This document shows, in pieces, positions 1 to 21,388 of a stretch of DNA of 21,388 nt (the first letter of the stretch is position 1; each line of letters opens with the position of its first letter). The position numbers were made by a program, and so were the translations under genes. The DNA lies in the IMG/VR virus record IMGVR_UViG_3300042509_001366, positions 1 to 21,388 of that record. One strand, written 5' to 3'. This stretch comes from a virus. The notes below the pieces were generated by a model. That model did not search any database. It saw only the letters and a program-made list of their open reading frames with translations, and was not told the DNA's origin.

Positions 1-2321
1 CCGTTGAAGAACCGTTGCAGTGAGAGCGATGCCGTCCCGGCCGTGGGCGTGTACAGCACACTGACTGCCTGCCGCCCGTCTTCGTTGGACAGCGCCATGT
101 TGCCGGTGCGCAGGCTGTAGGGAATAGACGCGCCGCTGTCGGAAAAGCCCGCCATTCGCACAAACCCACCGGAGGCGGTGGCATAGGCCACGCCTTGTTG
201 ACCGCCAACGGCATACGGCGCCGCGGCCGTCAGAGAAACGGCGTACCGCTCCTCCCACCAAGCCTTGGTGGTGGTGCTGTAGCACAGCGCGCGAGAGGGT
301 GTGGAATCACTGGCCGTGCAGTAAAAGAAACGAACCACCTTGGTGGCCAAGTCAGCCCGTACAAAGCACTGCGACGACTTTGAGAAGTCGATGATGCCGT
401 CGCGGAAATAGTCGTCCACCGGAACGGAGAGCGGCTGGTCGCCTTGGCCATCGAAGGCGTACAGGCCGTAGCTGTCTGCGATGTACGCCACGCCGCCCAT
501 AACGTCGAAGCAGCGGCTGTTGAGTACGCCGCGGTAGGCCACCAACATGATGCTCGCGTCCAGCACCGGCTGGGCTACGTACGACAGTTTGTAGAGATGG
601 CGAGATTGGGCTGCTAGCAGAAACGACCCGAGCGGTATGAGTGCGACGATGGCGTCAGAATCCCCGGCGTTCTCTTGGACAACCAGTTCGTTCTCGGAGG
701 GGATCGATTCTGGCTCGTCCACCTCTGAGAAAAACAGGCTGTTGGGCCGCTCTCCGGTGGTGTCTACGGCCAGCCAGCACCTGTCTTGAAACATGCAGGC
801 TTCTGCGAAGTTGCCCGGGGGAACCCCAAAGCGGCGCGCGTTTAACTGGCCACTGGGCATGGTAACGGGAAGAAGTGCATACCCGTCCCGCTCCGCGTCC
901 GAGAGCCGTTCATCATCCAATGCGTCGGTGTATGTGCCCGAGAAATTGTTGGCCGACCGAAGGATCTTGGCCACGCGAAACAGCAGCACGCTCTGGTCGG
1001 CGGTTGTCCGGTACAGTTCCACCGCATGCACGCGGTCATCCAGCCCGGCGTGCGAGAGCGTCCAAGTCAGCGACGACGCCCCGGCAGTTGCGTCTACTTC
1101 CACTAGCTCAGAGATAGACGAGCTAATCGGGCCGCTCTGGCTTTCGGGCGTGGCGTCGATGTAGCGGATGGCGCACTTGTACGTGCCTCGCAGAGCATTG
1201 CTGATGGTGGCGGTGGCGGTGGCCTGGTAGTCGCCAAGAACAACCGTGGGCGGCGCAGAGTACTGGCCCGCTCCGGACACTGTGATCTTGGTCACTGACC
1301 CGCCAGAGACGGTTGCAGTTGCAGCAGCAGCGCTGGAGGTAACATCCGCGACAGCTGGCTGGAACGAAACCTGGGGCGGCGTGAGAAAGCCCGTGCCCCC
1401 AGAGACTACTGTCACAGCGTTGACGCCGTACTGCATGCCGACAAGAAGGCTTGCCCCCGAGCCTCCGCCGCCCGAGAGCGTGGCCGTCACGCCGGTAGTT
1501 GCTCCAGTGCCACCACTCAGCACGTCCACGGACAGCACTTGGCCCGTGTCGGACACGTTGACGGTCGCTCGCGCATTGGCCAATCCCTGGCTAGAGGAAA
1601 ACACAACTGTCGGCGCGGACGTGTAGCCAGACCCGCCATTGGCAACCGTCACCGCGGAGATGGACCCAACCACGCCCACATTGAAGGAAGCGTTCGCTGC
1701 GTTGCTGGCGCTGAGCGTGACAGTGGGCGCAGCCTGGTAACCGACTCCCGGCTCCGAGATGTCGATGCCGACTACGCGGCCACCGGCAATCTGCGCTTTT
1801 GCAGTCGCGGGCGTCGTCGGTGTTCCACCGGCAAACGTCACGGATGGAGCGGTGGAGTAGCCGCTGCCTGGGCTGACCACGCTGACAGAGTCCACATAGC
1901 CCGCCATCGCGGCGCTCGCTATGGTCACGGCAGGGCCTTTGTGCGGCTTCTGCACGCCGATTGGTTGCATCGTCCCGGCCGCGCCATTCCACCGCAGACC
2001 GCGCCCCATGCCGTCAAACACATAGAGGTCATTCAATCGCGACCGCACAAAGCTGGCCGGCAAGAGGGGGCCAGCGTAAACCTTCGCGGTCGCCGCTGCA
2101 TTGCCACCGATGGTGACAGTCGGCGCCGTTGTGTAACCCGTGCCACCGTTGATGATCGCGACCGACTCCACTTGCGTGCCGGCCATGTGGGCAATGCCTG
2201 ACGCACCCGTTCCACCACCACCCGAGAACGTCACTGTGGGCGGCGCGGTATACCCAGACCCTCCGGTGGACATGGAGATCGAAACAACCTGCCCAGAGCG
2301 CCGTTGCGCAAGGAATGTCAT
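1..2321 (-). CDS. Tail nozzle / stabilization-like protein with GGSGYT repeats (3' end cut off)
   Basis: An open frame of 773 codons runs off the left edge. Its ATG overlaps the stop of the preceding gene (ATGA at 2321-2318). Residues 12-84 and 141-375 are degenerate beta repeats built on a GGSGYTxAPTVT core. Between them lies a segment with LNDLYVFDGMGRGLRW, and after them RGTYKCAIRYIDATPES and FFSEVDEPESIPSENE (near residue 529). The last motif and the later pattern of short beta strands (RHLYKLSY, YGLYAFDGQG, KAWWEERYA) resemble the beta-propeller tail proteins of short-tailed phages (P22 gp10 stabilization protein, T7 gp12 nozzle). By position and family resemblance it would sit at the distal end of the tail, after the adaptor gene. 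The repeats are not part of the usual propeller and look like surface insertions. The family call is by motif memory and not by alignment. Confidence 0.72.
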   Translation of the reverse strand, partial: MTFLAQRRSGQVVSISMSTGGSGYTAPPTVTFSGGGGTGASGIAHMAGTQVESVAIINGGTGYTTAPTVTIGGNAAATAKVYAGPLLPASFVRSRLNDLYVFDGMGRGLRWNGAAGTMQPIGVQKPHKGPAVTIASAAMAGYVDSVSVVSPGSGYSTAPSVTFAGGTPTTPATAKAQIAGGRVVGIDISEPGVGYQAAPTVTLSASNAANASFNVGVVGSISAVTVANGGSGYTSAPTVVFSSSQGLANARATVNVSDTGQVLSVDVLSGGTGATTGVTATLSGGGGSGASLLVGMQYGVNAVTVVSGGTGFLTPPQVSFQPAVADVTSSAAAATATVSGGSVTKITVSGAGQYSAPPTVVLGDYQATATATISNALRGTYKCAIRYIDATPESQSGPISSSISELVEVDATAGASSLTWTLSHAGLDDRVHAVELYRTTADQSVLLFRVAKILRSANNFSGTYTDALDDERLSDAERDGYALLPVTMPSGQLNARRFGVPPGNFAEACMFQDRCWLAVDTTGERPNSLFFSEVDEPESIPSENELVVQENAGDSDAIVALIPLGSFLLAAQSRHLYKLSYVAQPVLDASIMLVAYRGVLNSRCFDVMGGVAYIADSYGLYAFDGQGDQPLSVPVDDYFRDGIIDFSKSSQCFVRADLATKVVRFFYCTASDSTPSRALCYSTTTKAWWEERYAVSLTAAAPYAVGGQQGVAYATASGGFVRMAGFSDSGASIPYSLRTGNMALSNEDGRQAVSVLYTPTAGTASLSLQRFFN
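1197..1901 (-). repeat. Second GGSGYT repeat block of the nozzle-like gene
   Basis: This encodes residues 141-375, with six degenerate units. Cores read SPGSGYSTAPSVTFAG, EPGVGYQAAPTVTLS, NGGSGYTSAPTVVFSS, SGGTGATTGVTATLSG, SGGTGFLTPPQVSFQP and SGAGQYSAPPTVVLGD. Units 4 and 6-8 have drifted most. The block separates the first propeller strands from the RGTYKCAIRY segment. Confidence 0.8.
2070..2288 (-). repeat. First GGSGYT repeat block of the nozzle-like gene
   Basis: This encodes residues 12-84 of the nozzle-like protein. There are two copies of a unit of about 35-40 residues with the cores TGGSGYTAPPTVTFSG and NGGTGYTTAPTVTIGG. They sit immediately after the first ten residues and before the first recognisable propeller strand. 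Confidence 0.8.
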
Positions 2322-14793: not shown

Positions 14794-15304
14794 GTTGCAC
14801 CTCCTTTAAGGGAATTCCCTGCACAGTAATTGTCGTTGCGGCTTCAAGGATTCGCTCCCGCAACTCATCTTCCAGTTCCTCTTCAGTCCACGCCGTGAGC
14901 GGTTTCTTAGCCCCACCCATAGCCGTGTTGGCAGACACCAGCCGAACGACCGTATCCAGCATCTTGGTGCGGAACGCGCCGCCGGACGGGGAGTCGAACA
15001 GCTGCTTCATGTAGCAGTTTGCGAACCCCCGAACACCGCCGAAGTACTCCATCAGCACTTCCAAGAGTTCCGACGAATGCGGGATGTTGGCGCCGCCGAT
15101 GCGCGCGGATGCGACGAACAGATCGACAGCGCCCTTCTCAATCTCCGCTAGCTTCTTGTTGGTCTTCTTCTTGCGAGACTTCTTCTCATGGGCGTTGCGG
15201 CACTTGCGACACCGGGCGTGAAACCCATCCTTCGACTTATGCCAGTTAGCGGGAGTCAACTCATAGGAGTTTCCGCACTGGATGCACGCCTTGTACTCTG
15301 CCAT
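14675..15304 (-). CDS. Zinc-finger protein, candidate small terminase subunit (209 aa)
   Basis: I start this gene at the ATG at 15304 (MAEYKACIQCGNSYE), which overlaps the glycosyltransferase stop (TAATG), and not further upstream. Cys7, Cys10, Cys32 and Cys35 form a four-Cys zinc knuckle, followed by a Lys-rich stretch (HEKKSRKKKTNKK) suited to DNA binding. The central part is helical (SSELLEVLMEYFGGVRGFAN, then KMLDTVVRLVSANTAMGG) and then acidic (TAWTEEELEDELRERIL). A DNA-binding N-terminus plus helical oligomerisation core, placed just before the large terminase, fits a small terminase subunit. This is inference; a CxxC-zinc transcription factor is the alternative. The last 39 codons overlap the mini-gene at 14793 in another frame and read as low-quality text. 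Confidence 0.7.
   Translation of the reverse strand: MAEYKACIQCGNSYELTPANWHKSKDGFHARCRKCRNAHEKKSRKKKTNKKLAEIEKGAVDLFVASARIGGANIPHSSELLEVLMEYFGGVRGFANCYMKQLFDSPSGGAFRTKMLDTVVRLVSANTAMGGAKKPLTAWTEEELEDELRERILEAATTITVQGIPLKEVQHGVQNMPVVGADRGDVGQVQAIPAAGDGGRGLQPDHRPD
14799..14807 (-). promoter_or_regulatory. Strong Shine-Dalgarno for the Cys-rich mini-gene
   Basis: The minus strand reads AAAGGAGGT, five bases before the ATG at 14793. It is a near-complete anti-Shine-Dalgarno match and lies inside the upstream zinc-finger gene. Its presence decides that the 57-residue frame is translated. Confidence 0.85.
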
Positions 15305-16197
15305 TACCGCGGCTTGTCGCTCTCCTGCTGGAGGTACTGCCGCAACTGGGCGGGCGGGGTCACAGACACCAGCTTCACGCCGTTGTCGTAGTTGGCCTCC
15401 CAGCACTGCTTGAGCTTGGAACTGACATCGACAGCCTGGATGATCTGCGGCTTGCCGACGCACTTGGGCTTCCAATGCCCGGCCCACGCATCCCAGTTAC
15501 AGAACACCGGGTTGTAGCCCAGCTTCTGCGTGCCGGCGAGCGACAGGTCGCGGGTCATCGTCACGTCCTCAGTCGAAGACTTTTCCGCTTGGTAATGGTC
15601 CGGGTATTCGTAGTAAAACCACGGCTTGTCGTCCGAGCCTTTTGGCTCCGTGATCTCAAAGGCACGCATGTCGTACATGATCAACCCAGTTGGGAGAGCA
15701 GCGCACTCCTGAATGCCAGCGAGCTTGGCGCCCGTGTCGCGGTCGTACATCTCCAGCTTGAAGTCTGGGTTTGCGTTCGCTGACTGATGGGCCTGCCAAC
15801 GGAACACGTACACGTTCTCATGGGGCGGCGGGCCGCAGTAGGGCGCGCCAATCACAACCGGACCCTTGGGGTAATGCTCCACCAAGAAGTCAAACGAAGA
15901 CTTCAGGAACGGCTTTGCATCAGCCTGCCCGGCGTACAGGTCGGGCTTCATGTCCGAATCAATCATCACCAAGACATCGACTCCGTACTGCCGTGCCATG
16001 AGAACGGCACGGTTTCTGGTCATGGTGATGGGTGTGTCTGAGAGGTTCCAGACTTGGATGTTGGAAACGCGAGGATCTTGGGACAGGCTGGTGACCGATG
16101 GCAGCATCCATTCGCGAATGTCAGGCACCTCAGAGGAGATGCCACCATTGCCGCCATACGAAAACGTGCAGAAGCCGATATGAAATTTCTGCTGCAT
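15304..16197 (-). CDS. GT-A glycosyltransferase (GT2-like)
   Basis: The product is 297 residues with the features of a GT-A fold enzyme. TRNRAVLMARQ at 60-70 is the usual nucleotide-sugar side helix, and VLVMIDSDMKP has the DxD-type metal site at D80-D82. PTGLIMYD at 169-176 is the acceptor-side strand, STEDVTMTRDLSLAG holds the ED pair at 210-211, and NWDAWAGHWKP carries the late metal-binding His (H241). All key residues are present, so it should be active. It may add sugar to phage structural protein or DNA, or to host surface glycan. The donor and acceptor are unknown. It is the first gene after the promoter at 16250-16215, with GGGGG 4 bases before the ATG. Glycosyltransferases in structural regions occur in other phages, but the target there is generally unclear. 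Confidence 0.8.
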   Translation of the reverse strand: MQQKFHIGFCTFSYGGNGGISSEVPDIREWMLPSVTSLSQDPRVSNIQVWNLSDTPITMTRNRAVLMARQYGVDVLVMIDSDMKPDLYAGQADAKPFLKSSFDFLVEHYPKGPVVIGAPYCGPPPHENVYVFRWQAHQSANANPDFKLEMYDRDTGAKLAGIQECAALPTGLIMYDMRAFEITEPKGSDDKPWFYYEYPDHYQAEKSSTEDVTMTRDLSLAGTQKLGYNPVFCNWDAWAGHWKPKCVGKPQIIQAVDVSSKLKQCWEANYDNGVKLVSVTPPAQLRQYLQQESDKPR

Positions 16198-18292: not shown

Positions 18293-19411
18293 TCAGGCGG
18301 TGATGATCTTGAAGAAGTTGCGCGGCGACTTGAACTTCAGGTTGCCGAGCGTGGAAACCACGTACCTAAATTGCTGCGTGATTTCGTCGTAGAACGGTCC
18401 CTCACTGTTGAGCAACTGGCCTTCCATGCACAACAGTTCGATGTTGCCGACCGACAGACCGTAGCCCGTGCCTGCGGGAACACTCCCCTCAGACCCGATT
18501 TCCACGCCGTCCAACTCAAACACATCGGTGAAGCCATAGCTCCGCAGACCGTTGGTGCGGCTGACGATCACCCGCTCCTTGGAGTCCAGCGTGTTGAGGA
18601 AGTCGATGTAGCTGCGCCGGTCAAGGAGCAGCATGTCCACTTGATCTTCCTTGCTATCGTTCCGGCGAGTCTGATGAATCGCCTCACGCACAGCCTTCAC
18701 GCAGTTGCTCGCCCACGTGTTGTTGGGCGAAGCGTTGAAGTACGTGCTGGTTCCGTTGACAATCACAGGCGTGAAAAAATCGAACTCCGCCTCGGCCGAG
18801 CCGTTGGGCCAGACGCCCGTGGTCTGCGAGCCGCCGTACGCACCCAGCACCGTCGAAAGACCGGCGTAGGTGTCGGACGGGAAGTAGAACGGATCGGCAG
18901 GGTTCGCCGCCCGAGCCGCGCCGGTGGTGATGTTGATCGTCTGGCCACCGTGCGCCAGCATCGATTCAATGCCGTGGAAGCGAAGCTCGTTGCCAGCAGC
19001 GTAGCCGTCAACGATCCACTCCTTGGCAAGATACTGCTCCATGCTCGTCAGGAGACGGCTGGACATCTTGCCGGCGACGTTGACCAGAGCCTGTGCGCTC
19101 CGATTTTCCAACATCTCCTTTTTGTAGATCGCGTCACTGACCTGTGCGCCCCGGAATTCCAACTCTGCTCGCTTCCAGAGATTCTGCCGAGCGAACACGC
19201 GAGGCGTTTCACCGTTGTTCCCCGATGGAACGTGATTTTTAAACTGGATCTCCCAGTCGAAACCTCTGCCGCTCATGTTGGTCCGGATCTGTCCCGCACC
19301 CTCAAGCGCGGCAAACAACTTGTACTTACGAAGCGATGCAACCTCCTCCTCGCGGAGGTGATTGACAATCGTCGTAGCGATAGACCTTGCCCAGTCGGTC
19401 GAACTAGCCAT
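18293..19411 (-). CDS. Major capsid protein (HK97-fold candidate)
   Basis: The product is 372 residues and begins MASSTDWARSIATTIVNHLR. Its ATG overlaps the scaffold stop (TGATG). Text typical of an HK97-fold capsid shell protein is present: an N-terminal arm, SGRGFDWEIQFKNHV, AELEFRGAQVSDAIYKKEML with the long spine helix from 100 to 140, and SRLLTSMEQYLAKEWIVDGY. The P-domain strand is VDMLLLDRRSYIDFLNTL. The end SVGNIELLCMEGQLLNSEGPFY then RYVVSTLGNLKFKSPRNFFKIITA is the usual closing beta strand. The position after a scaffold-like gene and before a cement-like gene is the standard head order. No cleavage or protease domain is visible. The fold is inferred from size and context. Confidence 0.82.
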   Translation of the reverse strand: MASSTDWARSIATTIVNHLREEEVASLRKYKLFAALEGAGQIRTNMSGRGFDWEIQFKNHVPSGNNGETPRVFARQNLWKRAELEFRGAQVSDAIYKKEMLENRSAQALVNVAGKMSSRLLTSMEQYLAKEWIVDGYAAGNELRFHGIESMLAHGGQTINITTGAARAANPADPFYFPSDTYAGLSTVLGAYGGSQTTGVWPNGSAEAEFDFFTPVIVNGTSTYFNASPNNTWASNCVKAVREAIHQTRRNDSKEDQVDMLLLDRRSYIDFLNTLDSKERVIVSRTNGLRSYGFTDVFELDGVEIGSEGSVPAGTGYGLSVGNIELLCMEGQLLNSEGPFYDEITQQFRYVVSTLGNLKFKSPRNFFKIITA

Positions 19412-20445
19412 CAGATAACTCCATCGTTAGCGAGTTGGCTTCTCAGCCGTTCCTCAAAACTCATCCGCTGGCGCGGTGCCCGCGGTTCCGTAGTCCCAGC
19501 ACTTCGATTCGGGGTGCGTGTTGCGCGCTCCCGAAGGAACTGCATGTTCTGTTGTGCCACCGGGTCCGCAGGTGCCGCTGGGGCCGGTGCTGGCGCTGGC
19601 ACCCCTGCGAAACCCTGCGCCGGTTGTGCCTGCTGCATCTGCTGATAGCGCATGTTCAAAAGATCGCGCTGCAGCATGCCGGTCGCGTACTTCCAGCGAG
19701 ACTCAGGCGAGGCAATGCCTAGCTCCTGGGCCTGCGCGATGTACTGCGAGATTGCCTGACCTTCACGGGTCGGCTGGCCGTTCTGGTCATAGAGCCAGTC
19801 AGCGTTCTGTCGCTCAAGATCCGAAACGTAGTTCTGGGTCTTGTACTGGTTGAGATGGTTCTGCACCATCTCCTGCGCCTTCTGGATCGCAACCTGCTCA
19901 ACGAAGGGCTTGAGCGTGTTTTCGGGATCGGTCACCAGCTTGCGGGCGAAGTCCGCCGTGTAGCTCTGATATTCCCTCAGAGCCTGCTGGGCCTCATAGG
20001 GAGCGTCGGGTGCGATGACTTCCTTGCCCGTGGCGGGGTCGCGGACGATGTAGCTCTTCCACGTATCCTTCACCTGCGGCGGCGACCACCACTTCGGAGC
20101 TTCGGGTTCCTTCGGCTTGGCAGCTTCAGCCTGGGACTTCTTCCAAGCCTCAAACTCCCGCTGGTTCCGCAGGTACTCTTGGGCGTAGGGAACGACCTGC
20201 TGGTACTGCTGCAGCTGACGCTGGGTTTCCCCGTAGCCGTTGTAGGCCCGGTAGAGGTTCTGGGCGATGGAGAGATCGTCCTGCCCTTGGAAGTCGGGGA
20301 GATGCCGGAACGCAGAGTAGGGGGTGTCGAAGCCGGGAGTAGAAGTCTCCGTACCGGCCGAACTCTCAACTGGAGAGTCGTAGCTCGCCGTCTGCTCTGC
20401 GACGGGAGCGTCCTGCGTCTGGATGTCTGGTGTTTCGTCTGACAT
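19411..20445 (-). CDS. Scaffolding-like protein (344 aa)
   Basis: The ATG at 20445 has AAGGA 6 bases upstream. Residues 1-45 are acidic and disordered (MSDETPDIQTQDAPVAEQTA). Residues 60-120 are Gln/Arg-rich helices (QRQLQQYQQVVPYAQEYLRN then EAWKKSQAEAAKPKEPEAPK), and residues 165-275 are long amphipathic helices (YTADFARKLVTDPENTL, EQVAIQKAQEMVQNHLNQYK). A Pro/Ala linker (GVPAPAPAPAAPADP) precedes a basic C-terminus (RATRTPNRSAGTTEPRAPRQ and SFEERLRSQL). An acidic start, coiled-coil core and basic capsid-binding tail immediately upstream of the capsid gene are typical of phage scaffolding proteins. No protease motif is visible, so head maturation may use scaffold release. The identification is by composition and position. 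Confidence 0.75.
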   Translation of the reverse strand: MSDETPDIQTQDAPVAEQTASYDSPVESSAGTETSTPGFDTPYSAFRHLPDFQGQDDLSIAQNLYRAYNGYGETQRQLQQYQQVVPYAQEYLRNQREFEAWKKSQAEAAKPKEPEAPKWWSPPQVKDTWKSYIVRDPATGKEVIAPDAPYEAQQALREYQSYTADFARKLVTDPENTLKPFVEQVAIQKAQEMVQNHLNQYKTQNYVSDLERQNADWLYDQNGQPTREGQAISQYIAQAQELGIASPESRWKYATGMLQRDLLNMRYQQMQQAQPAQGFAGVPAPAPAPAAPADPVAQQNMQFLRERATRTPNRSAGTTEPRAPRQRMSFEERLRSQLANDGVI

Positions 20446-20493
20446 GTATTTCCTTTCGGGGGAAGGGTCTACATAGTCAGTGTCCTGTTTCTC

Positions 20494-21174
20494 CTATTTT
20501 GTTACGGTTCCGTAGATGGCGGCGCTCTCATCTGGAGTCAGGCGAAGCATGCGAATGGCTTCTTCAGCCGAAATATCAGGGCGCTTCCATTCAGGATGAG
20601 CTGGGAAAACCCAGCCATCGATCACCCCCCACGTTCCGTCTGGCATGGCGCCGACGTTTGACTTGTGCGCATCGCCCCAATCGACGCCCCTAGCCAAAAG
20701 CGACTGCTTGAGCCTCTCTGCCCCGCTAGAAAACGGGGCGGCGTACATGCCTCGCGAATAGACCGTGCGCGCCATCGGCTGGAACGCAACCGCCACGTTC
20801 GGGCCAGCCTGCTCCGCGCCCCAGTACGGAACGATTCCTGGAACGTCATGCGGATGACCTGCGCTGAAGTCGGTTGGAGCCGCATCTCCGACCCTCACTT
20901 TCAGTACGTGCGCCGGGGATCCTTGGCGAGGCATGGCTTCCCACACCAAAGACTCAGCCCCGGATCCCAGGTAGCGGCCAAGCTCCATCTTGTTGTCGCA
21001 AACAACCTGATCGATGCGATCCAGAGACTTCGGATATTGGTAAAGCAGATCCTCCGCCATCCGCCACCCGGCTCGCTCGGCGGCGTAGACGGCGTCTGCC
21101 GCTTCACGCATGCGCGGCGCTTTGGATGCGGAATGCCCGAGACGCAGGATCAGATCGTCTAGGTAGTTAGGCAC
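20494..21174 (-). CDS. Small protein kinase-fold (APH-like) protein
   Basis: The start is GTG at 21174, with AGGAG 8 bases upstream. The product is 226 residues. Residues 70-75 (GSGAES) match a glycine-rich nucleotide loop. Residues 90-93 (VLKV) carry the strand-3 Lys at K92, and VAVAFQPMARTV near 127-138 resembles the hinge strand. WGDAHKSNVG at 166-175 is a catalytic loop of the aminoglycoside phosphotransferase type (GDxHxxN) with Asp168 and Asn173. VIDGW has the metal-binding Asp186. All catalytic positions are present, so phosphotransfer activity is plausible. The N-terminal 60 residues form a helical extension. Both the ATP-binding lobe and the C-lobe are short. The substrate is unknown. 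It is encoded just upstream of the scaffold gene. A degenerate or structural use of the fold cannot be excluded. Confidence 0.65.
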   Translation of the reverse strand: MPNYLDDLILRLGHSASKAPRMREAADAVYAAERAGWRMAEDLLYQYPKSLDRIDQVVCDNKMELGRYLGSGAESLVWEAMPRQGSPAHVLKVRVGDAAPTDFSAGHPHDVPGIVPYWGAEQAGPNVAVAFQPMARTVYSRGMYAAPFSSGAERLKQSLLARGVDWGDAHKSNVGAMPDGTWGVIDGWVFPAHPEWKRPDISAEEAIRMLRLTPDESAAIYGTVTK

Positions 21175-21182
21175 TGAGCAGG

Positions 21183-21200
21183 CTCCTGTATTGCTACAGG
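21183..21200 (-). promoter_or_regulatory. GCAA-tetraloop hairpin covering the Shine-Dalgarno of the kinase-like gene
   Basis: The minus strand reads CCTGTA GCAA TACAGG AG. A 6-bp perfect stem is closed by a GNRA tetraloop, and the 3' arm includes AGG of the AGGAG ribosome-binding site. Folding would reduce initiation at the GTG (21174). It could also simply be a weak hairpin after the stop of the upstream gene. No T tract follows, so it is not a terminator. Confidence 0.5.
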
Positions 21201-21212
21201 ACTAGTGCCCAG

Positions 21213-21388
21213 CTACTCCACATCAACGTCCGACTCAGTCTCTATCCACACTCTTGCGCCGCAGCTGAGAGGGTGGTCTGGCTCATACCGGATCACGCAC
21301 GGGCCGCTGATTTTCACCGAATGGCCGTACCTGTTCTCTTTGTAGTTCTTCACTGTGAGGACAGGATTCCGCTCACCAGTCTTCTGGT
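21213..21388 (-). CDS. Partial gene at the right edge (C-terminal 57 residues)
   Basis: A frame is open from the right edge to TAG at 21215-21213. The visible text (QKTGERNPVLTVKNYKENRY, then KISGPCVIRYEPDHPLSCGA and WIETESDVDVE) has a natural composition and an acidic end. It contains two Cys residues and a beta-strand character, but no motif that I recognise. It is on the same strand as all other genes and precedes the kinase-like gene by 38 bases. The start lies outside the window. The function is unknown. Confidence 0.65.
   Translation of the reverse strand, partial: QKTGERNPVLTVKNYKENRYGHSVKISGPCVIRYEPDHPLSCGARVWIETESDVDVE

What the first reader, a model, noticed from the sequence alone, without database searches (positions are those of the whole stretch)
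20494..21174. Phage protein with a complete small kinase-type active site beside the capsid operon
A 226-residue protein carries a glycine-rich loop (70-75), strand-3 Lys (K92), a GDAHKSN catalytic loop (D168, N173) and a metal Asp (D186) in the right order and spacing for an aminoglycoside-phosphotransferase or eukaryotic-type kinase fold. Small kinases in phages usually act early on host enzymes. Here the gene sits directly upstream of the scaffold and capsid genes. It might phosphorylate a structural protein, for example the scaffold, or a host target. I see the motifs directly; the activity and target are inferred.
Basis: partly seen in the sequence, partly recalled or inferred. Interest (0 to 1): 0.6.

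Follow-up and report, generated by a model that had tools for sequence, protein, structure and literature searches.

The report
Swappable phage kinase beside capsid genes
The phage gene really does look like a very small protein kinase, but it is one of many interchangeable add-on genes slotted in just before the capsid genes, so it is more likely a protein carried in the virus particle and injected into the bacterium than a tool for building the capsid.

Summary
Observation confirmed: a 226-aa ORF on the minus strand, every cited residue in place. It has no Pfam, PHROG or NCBIfam match. Four divergent homologues (33-37% identical) keep G72, S75, K92, D168, H170, N173 and D186. A profile matches only kinases in the PDB, and an AlphaFold model (pLDDT 70) matches protein kinases (Foldseek E 9e-5). 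The core is minimal: no helix C, no C-lobe. E74 and Q132 fit the published description of 'Kinase-PolyVal' domains, although PF18762 does not match.

The 'acts on scaffold/capsid' idea is disfavoured. The gene is an accessory cassette: a relative with 91% identical capsid protein has a precise empty site. The kinase is in 4 of 56 distinct relatives; others carry ART-PolyVal or unknown genes in the slot. The slot ends at a conserved junction (CCCGTAACAAAA) that supplies the kinase's last four codons.

Unexpected: many unrelated cassette proteins share a short terminal peptide (LDDLIxRLG/DxIRxL; z 11, control 1.5; held-out 9 hits versus 1.4 expected). Best reading: interchangeable effectors with a candidate encapsidation tag, injected with the DNA, like T4 internal proteins. 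The kinase fold is well supported; activity, packaging and targets are inferred.

The parts
20494..21174 (-). 226-aa minimal protein-kinase-like protein
   Evidence: ORF; homologues; fold
21136..21162 (-). N-terminal peptide LDDLILRLG (residues 5-13), shared with termini of unrelated cassette proteins
20944..20967 (-). glycine-rich loop GSGAESLV (residues 70-77) with E74 just before strand 2
   Evidence: G72, S75, V77 invariant; E74 in 4 of 5 homologues
20899..20901 (-). K92, strand-3 lysine (VLK)
   Evidence: invariant in 5 of 5
20779..20781 (-). Q132 in the last N-lobe strand (model strand 127-133)
   Evidence: invariant in 5 of 5; strand
20656..20679 (-). catalytic loop WGDAHKSN (residues 166-173)
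   Evidence: W166, D168, H170, N173 invariant
20617..20619 (-). D186, metal-binding Asp (DG in place of DFG)
   Evidence: D186 and G187 invariant
20542..20568 (-). C-terminal AEEAIRMLR (residues 203-211), the DxIRxL form of the shared terminal peptide
   Evidence: E204, A206, R208, L210, R211 invariant; resembles ART C-termini EDSIRILR
20509..21212 (-). 704-bp insertion relative to the empty site in L006 (from just after the upstream gene's TAG to just before ACCGTAACAAAATAG)
20491..20508 (-). conserved cassette junction ACCGTAACAAAATAGGAG; supplies kinase codons 223-226 and the stop
   Evidence: present before the scaffold gene in most relatives whatever gene precedes it
19411..20445 (-). presumed scaffold gene downstream of the slot
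   Evidence: position before the MCP; conserved in relatives
18293..19411 (-). major head protein
   Evidence: phrog_9953 E 5.6e-8

Best explanation
The gene encodes a stand-alone, minimal Ser/Thr/Tyr-type protein kinase (N-lobe, catalytic loop and metal Asp; no helix C, no C-lobe) that resembles the kinase domains of phage 'polyvalent' proteins. It is one of a set of interchangeable accessory genes placed between the small virion genes and the scaffold/capsid genes of a freshwater tailed-phage group. Proposed working: late expression just before scaffold; capture into the prohead through a short terminal peptide (LDDLIxRLG at the N end, EEAIRMLR at the C end) that unrelated cassette proteins share; injection with the DNA; phosphorylation of host proteins at the start of infection. 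Shown here: the ORF, conserved active site, kinase fold match, cassette behaviour, shared terminal peptides. Inferred: catalytic activity, packaging, injection, target.
For: Invariant G72/S75/K92/D168/H170/N173/D186 in 5 divergent homologues. Profile-vs-PDB hits are four kinases only (lanthipeptide-synthetase kinase E 0.008, two ABC1-family kinases, RIO2); ABC1 is the only weak Pfam hit, to homologues. AlphaFold with 5 sequences: pLDDT 69.9, pTM 0.68, kinase strand order; all 50 listed PDB Foldseek hits are kinases, best E 9.4e-5; VIA rows all kinases, mostly residues 52-187, best Z 7.8; BFVD top hits are kinases. The same slot holds ART-PolyVal (PF18760, E 8.5e-6, 27 bits versus cut-off 31.2), ART in 31-32 of 56 distinct loci and kinase in 4. 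Precise empty site and conserved junction. Terminal peptides: z 11.1 cassette versus 1.5 downstream genes; z 7.4 N and 3.7 C after removing pairs with possible core homology; held-out loci 9 hits versus 1.4 expected, 0 of 69 downstream proteins. Polyvalent-protein kinases and their virion packaging are proposed in PMC5512222; T-even internal proteins are a diverse set sharing only a capsid-targeting sequence (PMC3012670).
Against: PF18762 (Kinase-PolyVal) does not match at all. The model is only moderately confident (C-terminal half pLDDT about 45-70) and VIA Z stays below 8. No virion proteomics were available for these phages. The terminal motif was noticed post hoc; held-out proteins include homologues of cassettes already seen, so the test is not fully independent. 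The ART C-terminal EDSIRILR may be part of the ART fold, and C-terminal ERLGE codons overlap a possible ribosome-binding site (GAAAGG...GGTGAG) of the next gene.
Confidence: 0.55

Rival explanations
1. Assembly kinase: it phosphorylates the scaffold, capsid or another structural protein.
For: Gene lies 48 nt upstream of the scaffold gene, same strand.
Against: Absent from most relatives, including L006 with 91% MCP and 86% scaffold identity and an exact empty site. The slot holds unrelated genes in other phages. Phages with 91% identical MCPs carry kinases only 37% identical (window versus L004), so kinase and capsid do not co-vary.
Confidence: 0.1
2. Accessory host-takeover or anti-defence kinase made inside the infected cell and not packaged; the spot is only a permissive cassette site.
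For: Cassette exchange at a fixed junction needs no packaging; the T7 protein kinase, the precedent cited in PMC5512222, acts after synthesis in the cell (own knowledge).
Against: Insertion within the late virion block, ART-PolyVal neighbours and shared terminal peptides fit packaged proteins better.
Confidence: 0.25
3. Phosphotransferase for a small molecule (APH-like), for example modifying a nucleotide signal or an antibiotic.
For: Small size and a D-x-H-x-x-N loop also occur in APH and related atypical kinases (own knowledge).
Against: Profile and fold matches listed are protein kinases, ABC1, RIO-type and lanthipeptide-synthetase kinases; no APH among listed rows, though an unlisted family is not excluded. 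No C-lobe to form an APH-type substrate pocket.
Confidence: 0.07
4. Pseudokinase or ATP-binding regulator without phosphotransfer.
For: No helix-C glutamate is recognisable and the model has no helix between strands 89-95 and 118-124.
Against: K92, D168, N173 and D186 are all invariant at 33-37% identity, which is unexpected if catalysis was lost.
Confidence: 0.13

Closest known systems
Kinase-PolyVal domain (PF18762; Iyer et al. 2017, PMC5512222)
   Same: Active-site residues kept, C-lobe lost, Glu just before strand 2 (E74), Gln in the last N-lobe strand (Q132), phage late-gene context with ART-PolyVal, stand-alone versions known.
   Different: PF18762 does not match; the published 'insert between His and Asp' could not be checked; described versions are mainly from Verrucomicrobia-Chlamydia and Bacteroidetes.
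ABC1/UbiB, RIO and lanthipeptide-synthetase (CurKC) kinases
   Same: Weak profile matches, mostly over the catalytic loop (RIO2 over the glycine loop and Lys strand); D-x-H-x-x-N loop and metal Asp.
   Different: They have full C-lobes and cellular roles; similarity is far below family cut-offs.
T4 internal proteins and Alt (capsid-targeting sequence)
   Same: A diverse set of head proteins sharing only a short targeting peptide (PMC3012670); Alt is an injected ART (PMC5512222).
   Different: Different peptide, found here at either the N or C end; no cleavage or packaging shown; no homology to T4 seen.
Encapsulin cargo-loading peptides
   Same: Short terminal peptides that load cargo into an HK97-fold shell (own knowledge, analogy only).
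   Different: Different sequence; no evidence of direct binding here.

Membership tests
Protein-kinase-like fold | Gly-rich loop, strand-3 Lys, catalytic Asp + Asn, metal Asp in order | tested here: met
   Invariant in 5 divergent homologues
Protein-kinase-like fold | Kinase N-lobe and active-site fold | tested here: met
   Foldseek PDB E 9.4e-5, all listed rows kinases; VIA Z up to 7.8, a middling value, over residues mostly 52-187
Protein-kinase-like fold | Helix C with Glu that pairs with the Lys | tested here: not met
   No helix predicted at residues 96-117 and no invariant Glu there
Kinase-PolyVal (PF18762) | Match to the curated HMM | tested here: not met
   No match
Kinase-PolyVal (PF18762) | Loss of the C-terminal subdomain | tested here: met
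   Only about 35 residues follow the last core strand (189-191)
Kinase-PolyVal (PF18762) | Glutamate N-terminal to strand 2 | tested here: met
   E74 just before strand 75-82; 4 of 5 homologues, Thr in L168
Kinase-PolyVal (PF18762) | Conserved Gln in last N-lobe strand | tested here: met
   Q132 in strand 127-133, 5 of 5
Kinase-PolyVal (PF18762) | Insert between conserved His and Asp | tested here: inconclusive
   Reference alignment (File S2 of the paper) not available
Aminoglycoside phosphotransferase (APH) | APH-type C-lobe and substrate pocket | tested here: inconclusive
   No APH among listed rows, but an unlisted family is not excluded; no C-lobe in the model
Capsid-targeted internal proteins (T4 IP type) | Shared short peptide on otherwise unrelated proteins | tested here: met
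   that the peptide targets the capsid is not shown
Capsid-targeted internal proteins (T4 IP type) | Presence in the virion and ejection into the host | not testable with these tools
   Needs virion proteomics or reporter packaging

The most novel reading that the evidence does not exclude
This uncultured phage group carries an exchangeable effector island next to its scaffold gene in which kinases, ADP-ribosyltransferases, a methyltransferase-like protein and unknown proteins are swapped at a fixed DNA junction and are marked by one short terminal peptide (LDDLIxRLG/DxIRxL), usable at either end, that acts as a prohead-loading tag.
Probability: 0.4. Interest if true: 0.8.

Novelty: new variant of a known kind. 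Interest (0 to 1): 0.55.

Why it matters
Polyvalent-protein kinases were predicted to be packaged and injected, but how a phage selects cargo for its head is known for few phages. Here a natural series of unrelated cargo candidates shares a short terminal peptide and a common slot, which makes a loading signal directly testable by fusing the peptide to a reporter. It could also give a way to list injected effectors in uncultured phages from sequence, and it adds a very small kinase core that may show how little of the fold is needed for phosphotransfer.

Tried and rejected
PF18762 in ten related records and 294 planctomycete-group genomes: no hit over the cut-off; the single weak match (L257) holds an integrase ORF. 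Cultured phages: no convincing relative of the kinase. Bacterial/archaeal genomes: no kinase homologue; one weak match in the Pirellulaceae MAG (E 0.0017 over 29 positions) was not followed. First AlphaFold model (3 sequences, pLDDT 51) was discarded. PADLOC and NCBIfam: nothing convincing. A first fixed-regex test on held-out loci was unclear (11 of 51 cassette proteins versus 9 of 84 downstream), probably because the pattern was narrow and homologues were counted repeatedly; I then used a regex-free shuffle test and a PSSM test. Considered that the N-terminal peptide is only a shared DNA recombination arm: possible for the window versus L005 (31 nt at 93.5%), but L041, L123, L036 and L076 encode the same peptide with different codons.

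Full report
WHAT IS THERE. The ORF at 20494-21174 lies on the minus strand and codes for 226 aa from a GTG start preceded by an AGGAG-type site. The gene order on that strand is: small gene (C-terminal part at 21213-21386), kinase, presumed scaffold (19411-20445), major head protein (18293-19411, phrog_9953 E 5.6e-8), further structural genes, terminase and portal.

IS IT A KINASE. No family library recognises it. The 2.9-million-contig viral collection gave only seven loci with relatives, which amount to the window's protein plus four other distinct ones at 33-37% identity. Across these, G72, S75, K92, D168, H170, N173 and D186 never vary. A profile of three of them against all PDB sequences finds four sequences at E up to 10, every one a kinase. 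AlphaFold with five sequences gives pLDDT 69.9 and pTM 0.68, with strands 63-71, 75-82, 89-95, 118-124, 127-133, helix 149-161 and short strands around the catalytic loop. Foldseek's 50 best listed PDB matches are all protein kinases (best E 9.4e-5, but TM only about 0.3). VIA-align gives Z up to 7.8, mostly over residues 52-187; that Z is middling on its own, so the case rests on the agreement of conservation, profile and fold. There is no helix C and no C-lobe in the model.

WHICH KIND. Iyer et al. 2017 (PMC5512222) describe kinase domains of phage polyvalent proteins that lost the C-terminal subdomain, kept the active site, and carry a Glu before strand 2 and a Gln in the last N-lobe strand. 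E74 and Q132 fit. PF18762 itself does not match, so I call it Kinase-PolyVal-like, not a proven member.

THE SLOT. Loci from major-head-protein and portal searches show that the stretch before the scaffold gene is hypervariable. In 56 distinct loci with enough upstream DNA, ART genes occur in 31-32, an 'INELQSD' protein in 19, kinase in 4, a methyltransferase-like gene in 2, and unknown genes in others. An ART gene from this slot matches ART-PolyVal (E 8.5e-6, just under the curated cut-off). L006 matches the window (99% up to the upstream gene's stop codon, about 96% beyond the slot) but lacks the 704 bp that hold the kinase. Just before the scaffold gene most loci carry CCCGTAACAAAA or a variant, whatever gene precedes it; in the window the kinase reads through it, so its last residues TVTK and its stop come from the junction. 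Window and L004 have 91% identical MCPs but kinases only 37% identical, while L004's kinase is 55-57% identical to those of phages whose MCPs are about 82% identical to its own: the kinase moves independently of the capsid.

SHARED TERMINAL PEPTIDES. Unrelated cassette proteins share short peptides at their ends: N-terminal LDDLILRLG (window kinase), LDDLIQRVG (L005), IDDLIARLG (L076/L077), LDELITRLG (L123), LDELIRRLG (L041), LDKLIQRVG (L036); C-terminal DDLIERLNQ (INELQSD protein), DSLIERLGEQ (L047), SDLIERLGEYG (L005), ADELIRRLR (L025). A related form is DxIRxL. A test without any pattern (ungapped similarity of 24-residue ends between clusters, versus shuffled ends) gives z 11.1 for cassette proteins and 1.5 for downstream genes. 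After removing pairs with any hint of core homology, z is 7.4 for N ends and 3.7 for C ends; some strong pairs there are cysteine-rich proteins or other resemblances unrelated to this peptide. A PSSM built from the first loci and applied to eleven later loci without close DNA overlap gives 9 terminal hits in 50 cassette proteins (1.4 expected) and none in 69 downstream proteins. Caveats: the motif was seen first and tested afterwards, gene starts were chosen by a simple rule, some held-out genes are homologues of known cassettes, and C-terminal ERLGE codons may also serve as a ribosome-binding site.

HOW IT MOST LIKELY WORKS. [quoted passage not shown] The cassette island has the same layout: interchangeable proteins, a common short peptide and a place beside the scaffold gene. 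I therefore think the kinase is loaded into the prohead and injected, and phosphorylates host proteins. Fold and cassette nature are supported here; activity, packaging and target are inferred.

HOST. Two contigs of one Pirellulaceae MAG carry portals 80-81% identical to this phage's. This suggests a planctomycete host, but binning error cannot be excluded. No cultured phage is close: terminase and portal matches are under 35% identical and partial.

Noticed in passing
L254 and L255 (Pirellulaceae MAG M30B19 contigs): Two contigs binned with a Pirellulaceae genome carry portals 80-81% identical to the window's, hinting at a planctomycete host for this phage group.
   Followed up: partly
window 20491-20508 and the same place before the scaffold gene in most related loci: Conserved CCCGTAACAAAA element at the right edge of the exchangeable slot; it may be a recombination site or a 5' leader of the scaffold gene.
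   Followed up: partly
L049 125-1168, L055 1356-1952, L163 3-803, L242 836-1489: Cysteine-rich proteins (CCKCCCG...) lie further upstream in many relatives; diverse sequences with a similar start, function unknown.
   Followed up: no
L001 163-435 (MDREGDKIRQLKAGAW...): Conserved 90-aa protein strongly matches the C-terminal part of several larger phage protein families (phrog_3477, phrog_727 and others, E to 1.5e-34), so it is a widespread domain found alone or fused.
   Followed up: no
L001 1320-2780 and homologues: About 490-aa 'INELQSDLG' protein in the same block, no usable Pfam or PHROG match, often ending in DDLIERLNQ; probably another polyvalent-type domain.
   Followed up: no
window 3-2321 (-): Long protein with GGSGYTAPPTVT-type repeats matching repeats of many phage structural proteins (phrog_460 E 7.7e-28 and others).
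   Followed up: no
window 15304-16197 (-): Protein with a DSDMKPD motif reminiscent of a glycosyltransferase, between head and terminase genes; conserved in relatives, no PHROG match.
   Followed up: no
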